A DNA stretch of 30,582 bases from IMG/VR virus record IMGVR_UViG_3300042453_002251, positions 1 through 30,582 of that record. One strand, written 5' to 3'. This document shows, in pieces, positions 3,792 to 27,345 of this stretch. Under the pieces are notes generated by a model. That model worked only from the letters and a program-made list of their open reading frames with translations, ran no database searches and was not told the origin of the DNA. Source of the stretch: a virus. The first letter of the stretch is position 1. Each line of letters begins with the position of its first letter. The translations under genes and the position numbers were made by a program.

Positions 3792-4130
3792 GAGGCGGGG
3801 AGCGTAGCTGTTACCATGCCAAGCCAAACGCACCGCCACCACGCAAATCCCCGCCCATCGCTTGCCAATCCACCCGGCATCCCCTGATTCAAACGCCCAT
3901 CCACCCCGTCCGCTTGTTGCGATTGATATCTTCAGATAACTGCATAGAGGAGATAGTGGCGACGATCCTATCTCAATAAGCTAGCCATGCAACACTAGTC
4001 TCTCATGCATCCCTAGCCTAGCCTGTAGCGTCTAAGGAATCTCTTTCCTGGCACACAGCCGACCGTCCCTCCACCCACCACCACACAGCCCAGATTTCGT
4101 CTATCACACATAAAAGAATTCCCTCCCACT

Positions 4131-4204
4131 TGTGAGAGAATCCGTTTCTGCTTCCTCTGTGAGAGAATCCGTTTGCCTCCTACTCGTGAGAAACCCTGTT
4201 TGCC
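4131..4204. repeat. Three imperfect tandem repeats, unit about 26-28 bp
   Basis: TGTGAGAGAATCCGTTT begins at 4131 and again at 4159. A diverged third copy (CGTGAGAAACCCTGTTTGCC) begins at 4185. Copies 2 and 3 share the downstream TTTGCC. Iteron-like arrangement in gene-free DNA; function unknown. Confidence 0.5.
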
Positions 4205-9206: not shown

Positions 9207-10433
9207 TCATTCTTTGAGCTTGCTGATCTCCCCGTCCATTGTGATCGGGAAGGTGTAGTTCCTTGGCCCACGGCGGTTCTTGTCCACGAAGATCATGGAC
9301 TTGTCGTTTGTGTGCTTGATGAAGATAAGCTGGTTGCTGTGCTGCTTGATCGCTCTGGACTCTCTGACCTTACCTTCGTCGTTTAGCTGGCTCCCTGTGA
9401 CTACGGGCACTTTGAGTTTAGTCGCGAGGTTCTTGAGCCTTCTAGCGATATCGGAGACCTGCTGCTCGCGGTTGTCGTTGTTCTCGCTCTCAATAATCTG
9501 GAGATAGTCGATGATAATCACATCGGCTTTCCCCAGCATATGCAGTCTCTCGGCTTCTGCGAGGATGGAGGGCAGGTCGAGAATATCGTCAACGATAATC
9601 AAGGGATACTTCTGGAGGGTTAGGATGGACTGGCTGATTGCTCCCAGTTCACGCCCGTGTGAAGTCTTATACTCCTCTGCCGTGCGGACTGGCAGGTTGG
9701 CGTGGTGGGCGACCATCCTTTCAAACACATCGGTCTTGTCCATCTCTAGGCTGAAGTAGACCACCGACTTGTTCTCCATGAGGTTAGCCATAGCCGTCTG
9801 CACCATGAAGATCGACTTACCTCCACCAGACTCCGAGGCCACGGTGAGCAGTTCTCCCCCGTGCATACCGCCCTTGAGGTTGCGGTCTAGGTAGACCAAA
9901 CCAGTCGAGAAGCAGGGTCGTTGGTCCTTACCCTCCATCTGGTCGATTAGCTTAACGGCAATCTCCTTTGCTGTTGAAAATTCTGTATTCTTTTCACAAC
10001 AAGTATGGGATATTTTATCAGCTAGCTCGCGGATATCGCCTTGGGCACTCCGAAGTTGATCCTCATGCTCTTCCATAAGCTGGATGGTTTTGCGATAAGC
10101 ACGATACTTGAGTAAGGTTAACCGCTCGTCACTAGCGATCTCTAGCACAATATCGCTCCGCAAGAACCTGTGGGCTTCCAGAATATCGGTGACAGGTGTG
10201 GACCCGCCGATCTTGTCTAGCTCTCCCATGGCTTCTAGCTCAGAAATGACCATAAACGCGTTGAAGTCGGGGTTCCGCTGGTAGACCCTTTGCATGGCGA
10301 TAAAGATCGTTCTGTGGTCTTGTAGCGCGAAATAATCGGGTTCCCAGACTTGGACTCCCAAGATTTCTGGCTGGATGCAGATGAGCGAGAGTGCGCTGAT
10401 CTCCGTGTGTGTGGCTATAGGGACTTTTTTCAT
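9207..10433 (-). CDS. DnaB-family replicative helicase (408 aa)
   Basis: N-terminal DnaB-like helical domain (residues about 5-110), then a RecA-type ATPase domain. Walker A is SESGGGKS (200-207), Walker B VIIIDYLQ (305-312), followed by the DnaB-typical segment VPVVTGSQLN (342-351) and a C-terminal RGPRNYTFP. It should unwind DNA at the phage fork as a hexamer. The first Gly of the canonical Walker A is Ser here, while the essential GK(S) is intact. It is about 50 residues shorter than typical cellular DnaB. No primase is visible nearby, so host primase or another gene must supply primers. It contains a TATCG-N4-CGATA site at 9584. Confidence 0.92.
   Translation of the reverse strand: MKKVPIATHTEISALSLICIQPEILGVQVWEPDYFALQDHRTIFIAMQRVYQRNPDFNAFMVISELEAMGELDKIGGSTPVTDILEAHRFLRSDIVLEIASDERLTLLKYRAYRKTIQLMEEHEDQLRSAQGDIRELADKISHTCCEKNTEFSTAKEIAVKLIDQMEGKDQRPCFSTGLVYLDRNLKGGMHGGELLTVASESGGGKSIFMVQTAMANLMENKSVVYFSLEMDKTDVFERMVAHHANLPVRTAEEYKTSHGRELGAISQSILTLQKYPLIIVDDILDLPSILAEAERLHMLGKADVIIIDYLQIIESENNDNREQQVSDIARRLKNLATKLKVPVVTGSQLNDEGKVRESRAIKQHSNQLIFIKHTNDKSMIFVDKNRRGPRNYTFPITMDGEISKLKE
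9584..9597. promoter_or_regulatory. Palindromic site TATCG-TCAA-CGATA
   Basis: Perfect half-sites with an asymmetric centre, inside the helicase coding sequence at the codons for IVDDI. This copy may be fortuitous. Confidence 0.4.
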
Positions 10434-10437
10434 TTGT

Positions 10438-11079
10438 TTATTTTTCTATTATCCATCCTGCAAATTCTCCGATCCTAAAAAATTCAACGAAATCGGAATT
10501 CAATTCTTTTGGAGAAAGCGGTCGCTGAATCCCGCTTAATGAAAGTTCCTTGCTTGCAATGTTCTCTTGACTTGCCCCACCCAGCAGCTTCCATTCCATT
10601 GTTAATCGCCGGAAAACAGAGCCAATATATCCGTCTGGCTGTATTTGCTTGTCCACTATAATAATGCATCCGCCATCCTCTATTTTGGATCGCAGCTTGC
10701 ATAAAAGCAATGACCTTCTGGAAGGATGGATGAACATCAAACTCAAGAAGCAGATAGCAACGGAAAAACCCTGATATTCATAATCAACGGCATCGCAGAC
10801 AGCAAGCTCTCCCACCCCGCTGTAGTTACTTGCTATCTCTGGGCTTTCCTCGATAGCCACCAGTCTTGCCCTTCGAGAATCTAGAATGCCAGATATAGCC
10901 TTTCCTATATTCCCCGTGCTTGCGCCTATATCATATACAAGTCCATCTTTTCTCAAATAGTTCTTAACAATACAAGATACCGTTTGAGTTGCAAAATCAT
11001 ACCAAGGAAGTTGCTCCCTGACATGAGAGTCAAAATTATTTACGATCCAATCGTTATTGAAGTTCCAGTCCTTTGTCAT
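10438..11079 (-). CDS. Class I SAM-dependent methyltransferase, CmoA-like (213 aa)
   Basis: SAM-binding motif I is LVYDIGASTGNIG (47-59), followed by acidic VAIEES (74-79) and CDAVDYEY (95-102), the order of a Rossmann-fold methyltransferase. The start (NFDSHVREQLPWYD) and the C-terminal KELSLSGIQRPLS and FFRIGEFAGWIIEK are, from memory, shared with phage methyltransferases related to the tRNA-modifying CmoA group. Substrate unknown: nucleic acid or a small molecule. It overlaps the C5-methyltransferase gene by 26 bases, so the two are probably made together. Confidence 0.8.
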   Translation of the reverse strand: MTKDWNFNNDWIVNNFDSHVREQLPWYDFATQTVSCIVKNYLRKDGLVYDIGASTGNIGKAISGILDSRRARLVAIEESPEIASNYSGVGELAVCDAVDYEYQGFSVAICFLSLMFIHPSRRSLLLCKLRSKIEDGGCIIIVDKQIQPDGYIGSVFRRLTMEWKLLGGASQENIASKELSLSGIQRPLSPKELNSDFVEFFRIGEFAGWIIEK

Positions 11080-11959
11080 ATTGTAAAAGTTTTTCAGCCA
11101 CCCATTTAACTGCGTTAACCGTCATTCCGTTCGCCTGATACATTTGAGATTCGGTCAAACCGCATCCTTCAAGCCAGTTATCAGGAAATCCTTGCAGCCT
11201 TAATCGCTCGACAACCCCAACCCTACGAATAGCTCCATCTCCGTGCAAGACGATATCGGTGAAACTTTTGTAATCTCTTTTTGCAATTGTTCCAGACAGT
11301 CCGCAGGCAGCGTATTCGTCAGAGCGTTGTCTAGTAAAGTAGGCAATGGGATTCTCCGTTCCCTCGCTCTCCTTAAAATACCAATCATGCTTTTCTGTGA
11401 TAGCATGAGCTTTGGATCGCACTTGGTAAGTAGAACGCTCTGAATTTTTGAGAGGGTCGGAGTCTCTGGAGATTCCGTCACGAAATCCCAGAATGTAAAC
11501 TCTGCGTCTCCTTTGCGGCACTCCGCAATACTTGGAGTCGATGACCGTCCAAGTCGCATCATACCCGCTCTCGGCCAAGTCTTGCATAATGACTCCAAGT
11601 CCCGATCCAAGGAGATCGTAAACATTTTCAATGATGATGTATTTTGGGGAAGATTCACGAATAACTCGCAAGTAGTGCTTCCACAGTCCGCTTCTCTCTC
11701 CATGAATTCCAAGTTTATTTTTGTTTGTGTTTGCTCTTGAGATATCTTGGCAGGGAAAACCCCCTGTGATAACCCAAGGAGAAAACTCTGGTTTGAATGA
11801 TGTGATGTCTCCATGAATTTTTGATTGTTTGAAGTTTTTTCTTAACACCGCTTGAAGGCGGGGTTCGTATTCTACAAATGTATGGTCAAATTCTCCGGCC
11901 ATTGATAGGCCCAACGCAAATCCTCCGATTCCAGAAAATAAGTCTAAGTGTGTTTTCAT
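11054..11959 (-). CDS. DNA (cytosine-5-)-methyltransferase (301 aa)
   Basis: All key motifs are present: I, DLFSGIGGF (6-14); IV, GGFPCQDIS with catalytic Cys70 (66-74); VI, ENV (111-113); VIII, QRRRRV (149-154); IX, VVERLRLQGFPDNW (249-262); X, QANGMTVNAV (275-284). The target-recognition stretch between VIII and IX (about 160-245) is short, typical of phage orphan enzymes. It probably methylates the phage genome against host restriction. No partner endonuclease is seen nearby. The ATG abuts the palindrome at 11961-11976, with no Shine-Dalgarno sequence. Confidence 0.93.
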   Translation of the reverse strand: MKTHLDLFSGIGGFALGLSMAGEFDHTFVEYEPRLQAVLRKNFKQSKIHGDITSFKPEFSPWVITGGFPCQDISRANTNKNKLGIHGERSGLWKHYLRVIRESSPKYIIIENVYDLLGSGLGVIMQDLAESGYDATWTVIDSKYCGVPQRRRRVYILGFRDGISRDSDPLKNSERSTYQVRSKAHAITEKHDWYFKESEGTENPIAYFTRQRSDEYAACGLSGTIAKRDYKSFTDIVLHGDGAIRRVGVVERLRLQGFPDNWLEGCGLTESQMYQANGMTVNAVKWVAEKLLQYDKGLELQ

Positions 11960-11976: not shown

Positions 11977-12891
11977 TTACTCGTTTGGTTTCACATTGGC
12001 CCAGTATTTGCCAGCGGCTACCGGGTCTAGTTTCTCGTCGGGGATTTCTGGGGCTGGCGGGAACATGGCACGGGCCTTGTCGATCTCACCAGCCCAGTTG
12101 TTAAGCAAGGTAAGCATGGAGCGGCGTGTGAAGACATCCTTCTCCCCGCGCTTGGCGTAGAGCTTTTCGAGCAGCTTCCAGTCCTCCTCGCAGGTTTGGA
12201 AGTGAGGCTTGGCAGCGCGTAATTCGGCGGCAGACCATGCCGTAGCATCGCGGCGACCGAGCAGGCGGTTGGCTCGCGCCTTGAAATCGGCGGAGGTTAT
12301 AGTTGATTGCAGAGAGCGCGAATCCATTGATGAGCGTTCGGCAATCTGTGGGTTGGACGGTTTGGGAACATTGGAATCAACCGTAGGGAACAAATCAGTA
12401 GCCATGGTTTTCGGAGCGTCAGCGACAAAACCATCTGATGGTTCTTTTGATGGTTCCTTATGATGGTTCATATAAGGGAGACTAACGCGCGTTACCCCCA
12501 CCCCCCGATAACCCGTGTTACCCCCTCCCCCACTAACGCGTGTTACCCCCTCCCTAGCCACCAATCTGCTTTTCGGCGTAACCCATTCCATGATATCGCG
12601 GGTAATTTTATCATCGCCAATCTGGTCAACCATGATCGTGTAGTAGTTCGATGTTTGCCTGCCAGACTGATCTTCTCTTTCTTCGCGTCTAACGACGCCG
12701 ACCTCTATCAGAGCATTCAGATACTTCTTTGCTATCGGCTCGGACAAGTTGGCTTTCTCTGCAATTTTCCGAATGGAAGGCCAACAGGCACCATCGTCAT
12801 TCGCACAATCGGCAAGGCTCAAAAGCACCAGCCGCGCATTACCCTCTGTCTTGCTCCGCTCAAAGACATCGGACATAATTTTGACACTCAT
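11977..12891 (-). CDS. O-like replication initiator with winged-helix domain (304 aa)
   Basis: The N-terminal region (MSDVFERSKTEGNARLVLLS, then CWPSIRKIAEKANLSEPIAK and YLNALIEVGVVRREE) is a helix-turn-helix of the HTH_36 type found in phage replication proteins of the lambda O class. The middle (about residues 115-160) is low-complexity Gly/Val/Thr/Pro sequence encoded by iteron-like DNA repeats. The C-terminal part (RSMLTLLNNWAGEIDKAR) is helical. It probably binds the origin inside its own gene and loads the DnaB-type helicase downstream. The start at 12889-12891 is tentative; no ribosome binding site is evident and the frame extends to 12975. Confidence 0.75.
   Translation of the reverse strand: MSVKIMSDVFERSKTEGNARLVLLSLADCANDDGACWPSIRKIAEKANLSEPIAKKYLNALIEVGVVRREEREDQSGRQTSNYYTIMVDQIGDDKITRDIMEWVTPKSRLVAREGVTRVSGGGGNTGYRGVGVTRVSLPYMNHHKEPSKEPSDGFVADAPKTMATDLFPTVDSNVPKPSNPQIAERSSMDSRSLQSTITSADFKARANRLLGRRDATAWSAAELRAAKPHFQTCEEDWKLLEKLYAKRGEKDVFTRRSMLTLLNNWAGEIDKARAMFPPAPEIPDEKLDPVAAGKYWANVKPNE
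12436..12555. other. Candidate replication origin: iterons plus AT-richer direct repeats
   Basis: Three copies of a 25-bp unit start at 12481, 12507 and 12532. Each carries a palindromic core (TAACGCGCGTTA, TAACCCGTGTTA, TAACGCGTGTTA) followed by a C-rich CCCCC(A/T)CCC tract. Beside them are three perfect TGATGGTTC repeats at 12436, 12448 and 12461 (period 12-13) in AT-richer sequence, like the unwinding repeats of an origin. They lie inside the initiator gene, as the lambda origin lies inside gene O. Function inferred. Confidence 0.6.
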
Positions 12892-13049
12892 AAGTGAAAA
12901 GGGGCGACCCCTTGCGGTGGCGAGCAGAAGCGGCAACTGACGCATGAGAGTGGTGAAACCACCACAAGGGATCATATATTATTGTTTACTTAATTCTGCT
13001 CTGTTTACTTCGGCTCTCACCCCGAAGGCGCGTTCTCACGCACATGGGC

Positions 13050-24472: not shown

Positions 24473-25894
24473 ATGAACTGCTCCTGTTTTACAAATCAAA
24501 CGCCAGAACAGCAACGCTATTCCATCTACAGCACATTGATGGACGCTGCGTTGCAAGAAAAAATCTCCGCAAGTTGCTTTGTCGTATTAAGCGAATCAGA
24601 GCAAGTCTGCCTTATAAACGATGCTCTAAACAAAGTATTTGAATTTGGAAACTTTGGCGGAGAAGGATTGCCCGGACTACCCGGCCCAGAAGGAGATCAA
24701 GGCCCTACCGGCCCTCCGGGGCCTCCGGGGAATGACGGAGAACAAGGGATACAGGGTGAAATAGGTATTCCGGGACCGCAAGGAGGCGTTGGACCGGGCA
24801 TTGATTTCCAAGGAACAGTTGCTAATCCAGCAGCACTCCCTACCCCATCCACGCAAGGTTTTGCCTATTTCGTTACAAGCACAAGCTCAATCTGGATTTA
24901 CAATGCAGCAGGAGTATGGGTTAATGGTGGCGTCATTCAAGGACCACCCGGCATTGAAGGTCCAGAAGGGGACCAAGGCCCTCCCGGCCCCCCCGGCCCT
25001 ACCGGCCCTCCGGGTCCTCCCGGCCCTCCCGGAACTCCCGGAGCTACTGGGCCAGCAGGCGAAGGCTTCTCTGCTGCAAACATTGTAATCGCAAGGCGCG
25101 GAGATAACTTAATTACAAAGTATGCTGAAGCAGTTGCGTTGGTCCCAGCCCCATCAGTTACAAATCGCTGCTTCCTAATCATTCTGCCCGGAGAATACAC
25201 AATCGGCTCAACGCTGAATGTGAACACAGATTTCGTAGATGTGATCTGCATGGAAGATCAAGAAAACACGCAGTATGCAATCATCAATGGAAGCATCAAT
25301 GTTACTGCGACTAATGTAAAAGTCTCTGGCCTTAATGTAACTGGATCACTCAATTGCAGCGGTGCGGCAACACAAATTTTCGCCAACTGCAAGGCGGGAG
25401 CGAATAGCTTTGGATATTCTACATCTGCACTAACAGTAAACAGCAAGTTCATCAATTGCACGGCAGGCAATAACAGTTTTGGTTCCTCAACCAATACGAT
25501 TGCCACGACGAGCGCAGAGTTTACCAACTGCACTAGCGGGACGAATAGTTTCGGATACGGAACGAGCGGAACGGTTGCCGGAACATTCACAAACTGCACG
25601 GCAGGCGTGAACAGTTTCGGTCATGGAACTAGCGGAGTCATTACTGCAAGCGGAACATTCCGCGACTGCACAAGCGGAACCGCCAGCTTTGGTGGATCGA
25701 CCAATGGTGTTGCAAGTGGATCGTTCTACGATTGCACCGGAGGTGAATATAGCTTCGGTGGAAATACTGGAGGCTCACTCACAGGTTTAGTCGCGTGGTG
25801 CAAAACCACTACTGGGGGATACGCGAACCAGACTGGCGCAGGTCGGGTCCGTATGTCCTTGGATGCTACTAATACAATCATAAACATTCCTTAA
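24473..25894 (+). CDS. Collagen-like beta-helix fibre protein 1 (473 aa)
   Basis: Domains in order: a Cys-containing helical head (1-60, [20 protein letters not shown]), a Gly-X-Y collagen stretch (about 65-110), a spacer (110-155), a second collagen stretch (about 157-197), a bridging domain (200-300) and about six 22-24-residue repeats of the type F-x-NCT-x-G-x-NSFG (about 305-450), likely a right-handed beta-helix. The collagen parts predict a trimer. Probably a tail or head fibre that binds the host surface. Paralogous to the next gene. Confidence 0.85.
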
Positions 25895-25896
25895 AA

Positions 25897-27345
25897 ATGT
25901 CAAACTGCACATGCCCTCCCACGGTAGAAGATCAGGAGTATGAGATTTATAAGACACTAAATACTGTCGCTGAAAACGCAGAGTTTTTTTCAAGCGCATG
26001 CTGGAAGAATTTGAGCGATGATCAGAAGCTGTGTTTGGTCACTCGCTCCTTCATTGATGTAGTAGATACTGTAGGCGGAAGAGGGCCGCGAGGCCCACAG
26101 GGGCCAGAAGGCCCAATCGGAGACGAGGGTCCACAAGGTCCGGCGGGATTGCAAGGCTTGCAAGGCATTCGTGGCATTCAAGGCATCGAAGGAGTTGAGG
26201 GTCCAGCAGTAGATTTTCGTGGAGCAGTTCCAAATGCCGCTGCGCTTCCAATACCATCGACTGCTGGCTACTGCTATTTTGTAGAAGGAGAAGGATCGTA
26301 TTATGTATACGATGGCTCTGCTTGGACAGGATATGGGCCACTTCAAGGACAACCGGGTCCGCAAGGCCCTCCCGGAGTAGATGGCCCTCCCGGAGTAAGT
26401 GGCCCTCCCGGCCCAGTCGGACCAGATGGGAGTGCTGGAATACCCGGAACGCCCGGTCTACCGGGACCTTCGGGAGGTTTCCAAGCTAGCAATATTATTA
26501 CAGCAAAAGTCGGTGATAATCTTGCGACTAAATATGCCCAAGCCGTTTCGCTTGCTACATCCATTGGAGCTACGGCAACAAACCGCGTGGCATTGGTTAT
26601 CATGCCGGGAAACTATTCCTTATCTACACAATGGAATATAAACACTGAATTTGTTGATGTGATTGGGTTGGGTTCAAGCCCCAAAAATCCTAAAGTAATA
26701 ATAACAAGTAGCGCAACAACAGGTATAAATGTTACAGCAAACGATGTAAGAATAATCGGTTTGCAAGTTTCCGCCGGGTCTTTCCCAATAGAAATAGCAA
26801 CAAATAAACCTCTTCAATATTTTCAAAACTGCACAGCAAATGGAACTGGATTTGGACGAGCTACTATATCCGGTCAAATATACAATGGAACATTTGTAAA
26901 TTGCGTTGCCACAAATGGATTTGGTTATAGCACAAACGGATCAAGACCAACAGCAGCTGGCACTTATATTAACTGCGCTGTTACAAATGGATTTGGATAT
27001 TCGTTTACCGCTGGTTCTGGAACAAGAGCAGCAAATGCATCTGGAACTTTTATAAAATGCAATGCAACCAATGGATTTGCCGGGAGTGCAGGCGCATTTA
27101 ACTCCGGAGGATTTTCAATTGCGTCTGGAACATTTATTGATTGCACCGCATCAGTATTCGCAAGAGATGATTTTACAGGAGTGGCAAAAAACTGCGTTGC
27201 TGGAGCAGACTCATTTGGCCCAAGAGTAAATACAGGCCAAATCATCAAATGCAAAAAAACTTCTGGGGCGTTTCCAACACTAACTGGAAGCGGCTTCATA
27301 AGATTCTCGCTTGACGGGAGCAACAACATCGTAAACCTTGGGTAA
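25897..27345 (+). CDS. Collagen-like beta-helix fibre protein 2 (482 aa)
   Basis: Same architecture as the preceding gene: Cys-rich helical head ([20 protein letters not shown]), collagen stretches (about 61-103 and 149-193), the shared bridge ([20 protein letters not shown], compare [19 protein letters not shown]) and a Cys/Gly repeat region ([11 protein letters not shown] type). It begins 2 bases after the previous stop. The C-terminal repeat region (about 26640-27280) is AT-richer than the rest, suggesting a separately acquired binding tip. Trimeric surface fibre inferred. Confidence 0.85.

What the first reader, a model, noticed from the sequence alone, without database searches (positions are those of the whole stretch)
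12436..12555. Iteron origin embedded in the initiator gene
Seen: three 25-bp repeats, each with a TAAC-GCGC/GTGT-TA type palindromic core and a C-rich tract, next to three perfect TGATGGTTC repeats of period 12-13 in AT-richer DNA. Both sets encode a low-complexity protein linker, so the constraint appears to be on the DNA. Known: the lambda origin lies in gene O, with four palindromic iterons beside an AT-rich unwinding region. Inference: this is the phage origin, recognised by the winged-helix part of the same protein, with the DnaB-type helicase downstream. The repeat sequence itself is unrelated to lambda.
Basis: partly seen in the sequence, partly recalled or inferred. Interest (0 to 1): 0.75.

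Follow-up and report, generated by a model that had tools for sequence, protein, structure and literature searches.

The report
Phage replication origin inside initiator gene
The stretch is very probably the phage's DNA replication start site, hidden inside the gene for the protein that starts replication; next to its phage-specific binding sites sits a short repeated DNA word, AACC(A/G)TCA, that turns up at the same spot in many unrelated phages and is read in different reading frames, so the DNA itself, not the protein, is being conserved.

Summary
Three 23-25 bp palindromic, C-tailed iterons (TAACN4GTTA-CCCCC) and three TGATGGTTC copies lie in the disordered linker of an HTH_36, O-like initiator (gene 11977-12891, minus strand).

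The larger finding is the second repeat set. In 54 dereplicated, protein-selected initiator genes, AACC[AG]TCA occurs 95 times sense, 2 antisense, 1 reversed (codon-shuffle mean 10), 3' of the iterons in 42/42 genes, at about 11-bp spacing. It is read in all three frames: 29/34 genes with two or more copies mix frames. DNA-pattern scans return O-like genes: 79/120 and 110/120, control 0/61. Members occur in Pseudomonadota, Actinomycetota, Campylobacter and Chloroflexi genomes; none was found in 199 Bacillota genomes.

Best explanation: a lambda-like origin with a variable, initiator-specific iteron module plus a conserved, strand-specific unwinding/loading element, probably read by the initiator. 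No replication or binding data exist. I found no description of the array in the papers searched.

The parts
11977..12891 (-). O-like replication initiator gene (304 aa from Met-29 of the 332-aa ORF 11977-12975)
   Evidence: ORF; HTH_36 1.5e-13; PHROG replication initiation O-like 2.6e-26; start supported by relatives
12562..12891 (-). winged-helix domain, residues 1-110; proposed reader of the iterons, and possibly of the array
   Evidence: AlphaFold2 pLDDT mostly above 85 over residues 1-110; generic wHTH matches incl. DnaD N-domain and initiators, none with E below 0.001
12292..12558 (-). disordered linker (residues 112-200) whose codons carry both repeat sets
   Evidence: pLDDT 37-50 for most of it
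12532..12554 (.). iteron 1, palindrome TAACGCGTGTTA 12534-12545 plus C-run
12507..12529 (.). iteron 2, palindrome TAACCCGTGTTA 12509-12520 plus C-run; degenerate (half site) in most sisters
12481..12503 (.). iteron 3, palindrome TAACGCGCGTTA 12483-12494 plus C-run
12461..12469 (-). array copy 1: GAACCATCA on the coding strand; AACCATCA read in frame 0 (NHH)
12448..12456 (-). array copy 2: GAACCATCA on the coding strand; read in frame 1 (EPS)
12436..12444 (-). array copy 3: GAACCATCA on the coding strand; read in frame 1 (EPS). Copies 1-3 together are the proposed unwinding / strand-loading element
   Evidence: less stable than 93% of 40-bp windows nearby
9207..10433 (-). DnaB-like replicative helicase, the likely cargo of the origin
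   Evidence: DnaB_C 4e-39, DnaB N 1e-8; PHROG DnaB-like 3e-60
11054..11959 (-). C5-cytosine methyltransferase between initiator and helicase (context, not part of the origin)
   Evidence: PF00145 7e-49

Best explanation
The region is the phage's replication origin, written into the codons of the disordered linker of its own O-like initiator. It has two modules. Module 1 is three palindromic iterons (TAACN4GTTA plus a C-run), bound as duplex by the initiator's winged-helix domain; this module is specific to the lineage and changes with the recognition region. Module 2, immediately 3' in the gene, is a directional array of AACC[AG]TCA at about one helical turn (10-13 bp). It is conserved across otherwise unrelated O-like initiators and most probably works as the duplex-opening / single-strand-binding element that sets which strand receives the helicase (here the phage's DnaB-like protein). 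Shown: the sequence features, their conservation as DNA, and the order and strand bias. Inferred: binding by the initiator, melting, helicase loading. My weights: origin in gene about 0.9; array is the unwinding/loading element about 0.65; it is read by the initiator rather than a host protein about 0.55.
For: Initiator and helicase identity. About 20 sisters keep TAAC/GTTA arms while the centre drifts; L027/L028 have a nearly intact N-part (0.89 identity to the window) but a changed helix region (0.43), a different palindrome (TGAACCAGTTCA x2), and array copies 1 and 3 unchanged. In 54 protein-selected genes AACC[AG]TCA is 95 sense / 2 antisense / 1 reversed, codon-shuffle 10.1 +/- 3.0 (max 20), enriched in each frame; 29 of 34 genes with two or more copies mix frames; AACCATCA and AACCGTCA rank 2nd and 3rd of all 8-mers by gene count. 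Array 3' of the repeats in 42/42; spacing mode 11. AT content peaks on the array (0.60/0.55 against 0.35-0.38 in the iterons and about 0.40-0.46 downstream). Pattern scans: 79/120 and 110/120 stretches in O-like genes, control 0/61. Repeated 10-mers in the linker exceed all 30 codon shuffles in 50/54 genes. The array occurs with several downstream modules (DnaC-like, P-like, DnaB). The AACC[AG]TCA and AACCAGTCA variants co-exist within Stenotrophomonas and, inferred from record titles, within Enterobacterales, following the initiator. Precedents: lambda O origin, P22, P1 repL, where synonymous changes in an AT-rich segment reduce RepL-driven amplification (PMC9948254), RctB binding ssDNA ATCA repeats (PMC10316083), TrfA/RepE binding one DUE strand (PMC4081077).
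Against: No replication mapping, binding or genetics. GC skew shows no clear switch at 12.5 kb. The array is only about 40 bp and modestly AT-rich. 15 of 54 genes lack the strict motif; 10 still lack it when AACC[AG]{1,2}TCA is allowed, though near-variants are visible in several. Global HTH-iteron correlation is moderate (Spearman 0.41) and partly phylogeny. Structure search gives only generic winged helices.
Confidence: 0.75

Rival explanations
1. The array is the binding site of a conserved host factor (a nucleoid protein, DnaA, primase or helicase loader) rather than of the initiator; the iterons are still the initiator's sites.
For: The motif is nearly invariant while the initiator's recognition region and downstream modules vary; it spans several host groups.
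Against: Variants AACC[AG]TCA and AACCAGTCA both occur within one host genus (Stenotrophomonas) and, inferred from titles, within Enterobacterales, and go with initiator type. No DnaA box within the origin region and only 4 in 54 genes. Position 3 of the initiator separates the two variants in the dereplicated set, but only 2 supported independent switches exist, so this is not significant.
Confidence: 0.25
2. Conservation is on the peptide: EPSxEPS/NHQ is a functional or disorder-promoting linker motif and the DNA repeats are a by-product.
For: The linker is disordered and Pro/Ser-rich; EPS is the commonest reading.
Against: The same DNA word is read in three frames (EPS, NHH/NHQ, TI) and 29 of 34 genes mix frames; codon shuffles keeping the protein give 10 copies instead of 95.
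Confidence: 0.03
3. The repeats are operators by which the initiator autoregulates its gene (or a transcript signal), not an origin.
For: Palindromic iterons could be repressor sites; many Rep proteins autoregulate (general knowledge, not tested here).
Against: They lie about 340-410 bp inside the gene, not at the promoter; the array is directional, at helical period and next to the iterons, as in known origins. A dual role is not excluded.
Confidence: 0.07
4. The conserved array is a recombination seam at which phages swap initiator modules, kept because it helps exchange.
For: It sits at the border between variable wHTH/iteron and variable C-terminal parts; sisters differ mainly on either side.
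Against: Repeats of 8 bp with variable spacers, strand-biased and helically phased, are poor recombination substrates; AT peak.
Confidence: 0.05

Closest known systems
Phage lambda ori in gene O (and P22 gene 18)
   Same: Origin inside the initiator gene; repeats in the linker codons, AT-richer segment on the 3' side; helicase or loader gene downstream.
   Different: Initiators belong to PF04492 Phage_rep_O, not HTH_36; iterons unrelated; no AACC[AG]TCA in either gene.
HTH_36 / PHROG 8540, 391 'replication initiation O-like' phage proteins
   Same: The window's initiator belongs here; iterons plus AACC[AG]TCA or AACCAGTCA array are shared by most members tested.
   Different: This iteron sequence (TAACN4GTTA) is specific to the window's close family.
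Vibrio cholerae ori2 / RctB
   Same: Short repeats ([G/A]ATCA) in the unwinding element bound as single strand by the initiator (PMC10316083, PMC10797057).
   Different: A different initiator family; repeats of another sequence and not described as lying in a gene; similarity of ATCA to AACC-ATCA may be chance.
Iteron plasmids RK2 (TrfA) and F (RepE)
   Same: Initiator binds iteron duplex and one specific strand of the unwinding element (PMC4081077).
   Different: Sequences and domain architecture differ; repeats are not in a linker of the initiator gene.
Phage P1 repL / oriL
   Same: Origin inside the initiator gene; synonymous changes in an AT-rich segment reduce RepL-driven amplification (PMC9948254).
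   Different: Different initiator; I did not test it for the array.

Membership tests
HTH_36 / O-like phage initiators | HTH_36 domain near the N-terminus | tested here: met
   PF13730 1.5e-13, above gathering score; PHROG 8540 2.6e-26
HTH_36 / O-like phage initiators | replication gene (helicase or loader) nearby | tested here: met
   DnaB-like helicase 9207-10433
Lambda-type origin (architecture) | origin repeats inside the initiator gene's linker codons | tested here: met
Lambda-type origin (architecture) | several palindromic iterons | tested here: met
   three, TAACN4GTTA
Lambda-type origin (architecture) | AT-richer segment beside the iterons, 3' in the gene | tested here: met
   window and 44-gene profile; modest
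Lambda O family (PF04492) | Phage_rep_O domain | tested here: not met
   no PF04492 match for the window protein against 6e-36 for lambda O
Replication origin (function) | replication starts here / autonomous replication | not testable with these tools
   GC skew without a clear turn at 12.5 kb
Iteron-type initiator | initiator binds the repeats | not testable with these tools
   indirect: palindrome differs where the recognition region differs, L027/L028
DnaA-dependent origin | DnaA boxes in the origin | tested here: not met
   none with up to 1 mismatch between 9999 and 13490
AACC[AG]TCA array class (defined here) | two or more sense copies 3' of iterons, 10-13 bp apart | tested here: met
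   3 copies, spacing 13 and 12

The most novel reading that the evidence does not exclude
A single directional DNA word, AACC[AG]TCA (variant AACCAGTCA), is the common unwinding / strand-selection element of origins embedded in HTH_36 O-like initiator genes across several bacterial host groups. It is read as single strand by the N-terminal part of the initiator itself, with position 3 of the protein co-varying with the variant: a phage counterpart of the DnaA-trio or the RctB ATCA repeats.
Probability: 0.45. Interest if true: 0.82.

Novelty: new variant of a known kind. Interest (0 to 1): 0.68.

Why it matters
Origins inside initiator genes are known one by one (lambda, P22, P1). Here a sequence signature would locate the origin, its orientation and its iterons in very many phages and prophages from DNA alone, and split each origin into a swappable specificity module and a conserved opening module. 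It also gives a clean test system for how initiators choose a strand: named phages such as Pseudomonas phi2, Sphingopyxis VSN-002, Escherichia PhiR47_1 and Stenotrophomonas BUCT709 carry it. Because the motif is read in several frames, synonymous recoding can separate DNA function from protein function.

Tried and rejected
Peptide-level explanation (EPS/NHQ linker): rejected by mixed frames and codon shuffles. DnaA-box origin: no boxes nearby. GC skew: uninformative; AT skew changes sign near 13 kb, but gene orientation changes there too. Lambda membership by sequence: not met. Triple AACC[AG]TCA pattern in genomes: 67 of 117 hits are perfect minisatellites with only 1 in an O-like ORF, so perfect tandem repeats are uninformative; of 50 imperfect ones 29 are O-like and several others look like broken O-like genes. 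Bacillota sample: 2 of 199 genomes, neither in O-like genes, so the motif is not universal. Parageobacillus O-like gene: no motif. Position-3 'code': complete separation in the dereplicated data but only 2 supported independent switches, so not established. Searching papers for the motif letters gave only unrelated papers, apparently primers; full-text searches found no description of the array. The RctB paper itself (PMC7641748) is not held.

Full report
What is there. The finding's span lies in the linker codons of a 304-aa gene on the minus strand (11977-12891). The 332-aa ORF listed starts 28 codons earlier, but close relatives start at the internal Met. The protein has an HTH_36 domain and matches PHROG 'replication initiation O-like'. 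A C5 methyltransferase, a tRNA-methyltransferase-like protein and a DnaB-like helicase follow in the same direction. The AlphaFold2 model has a confident winged helix (1-110), a disordered stretch (about 111-200) and a helical C-part.

The two repeat sets. Three iterons at 12481-12503, 12507-12529 and 12532-12554 share TAACN4GTTA followed by CCCCC. Three GAACCATCA copies (coding strand) lie 12 and 13 bp apart. Because 13 is not a multiple of 3, the same DNA word is read as NHH in one copy and EPS in two. Codon shuffles that keep protein and codon usage do not account for the repeats.

Close relatives. 29 loci encode relatives of the N-domain. Among complete window-type sisters the arms TAAC/GTTA are kept (TAAT in one arm of two L025 copies) while the four central bases vary, including the wobble base of a Thr codon that falls in the centre. 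In L027 and L028 the first 36 residues of L027 are 0.89 identical to the window but the following 47 only 0.43; their palindrome is TGAACCAGTTCA, while array copies 1 and 3 are unchanged. This is a natural swap of recognition region and iteron with the array left in place.

Distant relatives, chosen without using the motif. 80 viral loci were selected by an N-domain peptide pattern (the seed alignment itself was drawn mostly from motif-bearing genes, a mild bias, though of L029-L032, found by protein alone, three of four also carry the motif). In 54 dereplicated genes AACCATCA and AACCGTCA rank second and third of all 8-mers by gene count. AACC[AG]TCA: 95 sense, 2 antisense, 1 reversed; null 10.1 +/- 3.0; frames 19/57/19, each above its null. 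39 of 54 genes have it; 44 with AACC[AG]{1,2}TCA. It lies 3' of the repeats in 42 of 42, spacing mode 11. 29 of 34 genes with at least two copies use more than one frame. Iterons in these genes differ widely in sequence but are often C-run plus palindrome, e.g. CACCCCCGCAGAATCTGC; repeated 10-mers exceed all 30 codon shuffles in 50 of 54 genes. AT content rises on the array.

Blind DNA scans. AACCAGTCA-N1-12-GAACCAGTCA: 110 of 120. In genome samples (orders and phyla inferred from the titles of the seed records): Burkholderiales, 4 of 200 genomes, all 4 in O-like genes; Actinomycetota, 3 of 198, two in O-like genes (Mycetocola, another) and one in what looks like a broken one; Enterobacterales, AACC[AG]TCA in 6 of 198 (one O-like, one truncated O-like by eye, the rest probably chance) and AACCAGTCA in 5, all O-like; Bacillota, 2 of 199, none O-like. 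O-like members in named genomes include Mycetocola, Bifidobacterium, Campylobacter concisus, a Chloroflexi MAG, Alcaligenes, Bordetella, Paraburkholderia and Stenotrophomonas.

Who reads the array. Downstream genes vary (DnaC-like, P-like, DnaB and others), so a particular helicase partner is unlikely to set the motif. The AACCAGTCA variant goes with initiators beginning MSM.LM..AM, AACC[AG]TCA mostly with MS[IVT]; positions 3 and 10 separate them even within the KLADNAND clade. Stenotrophomonas carries both types, as does an Enterobacterales sample. This favours the initiator over a host factor, but only two supported independent switches exist, so it is a lead.

Comparison with the known. 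Lambda O and P22 gp18 are Phage_rep_O proteins with their own iterons and no AACC[AG]TCA. The architecture is the same, the family is not. Single-strand recognition of short repeats in unwinding elements is known for RctB ([G/A]ATCA) and for TrfA/RepE, and synonymous-site dependence of an in-gene origin for P1 repL. I found no description of an AACC[AG]TCA array in the papers searched; the library lacks most subscription journals, including reviews of phage replication modules that I know of, so this is a limited negative.

Verdict. The iterons are a new member of a known kind; the conserved array is the part that may be new. No function has been measured.

Noticed in passing
window 1312, 5181, 6357, 9583, 11961, 13458, 14309, 16162, 18322, 21301, 24453, 27347, 29993: A dispersed palindrome (T/C)TATCGNNNNCGATAA: 7 exact TTATCGNNNNCGATAA copies and 16 matches with up to 2 mismatches against 1.17 expected (max 5 of 100 shuffles); several sit just upstream of start codons (11961, 18322, 24453, 27347). 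Looks like a phage-wide operator ('stoperator'-like) or other regulatory site.
   Followed up: partly
window 4122-4204: About three imperfect copies of a 26-27 bp tandem repeat outside the longer ORFs.
   Followed up: no
window 24701-25041 and 26365-26411: Gly-X-Y collagen-like repeats (GGCCCTCC-type units) in two neighbouring proteins (24473-25894, 25897-27345), probably structural.
   Followed up: no
L229, L220, L263, L241 and other O-like genes: Iterons of unrelated O-like genes often have a C-run (CACCCC or its complement) attached to a variable palindrome, as in the window; the C-run may be a second shared element.
   Followed up: partly
window 11054-11959: A C5-cytosine methyltransferase gene lies between initiator and helicase; whether it methylates the GC-rich iteron centres was not tested.
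   Followed up: no
L412 (Escherichia phage mEp554 O): HTH_36 O gene with clear iterons but no AACC[AG]{1,2}TCA; it has AATCAGTCA and AACCAGTAA instead, suggesting further variants of the array.
   Followed up: no
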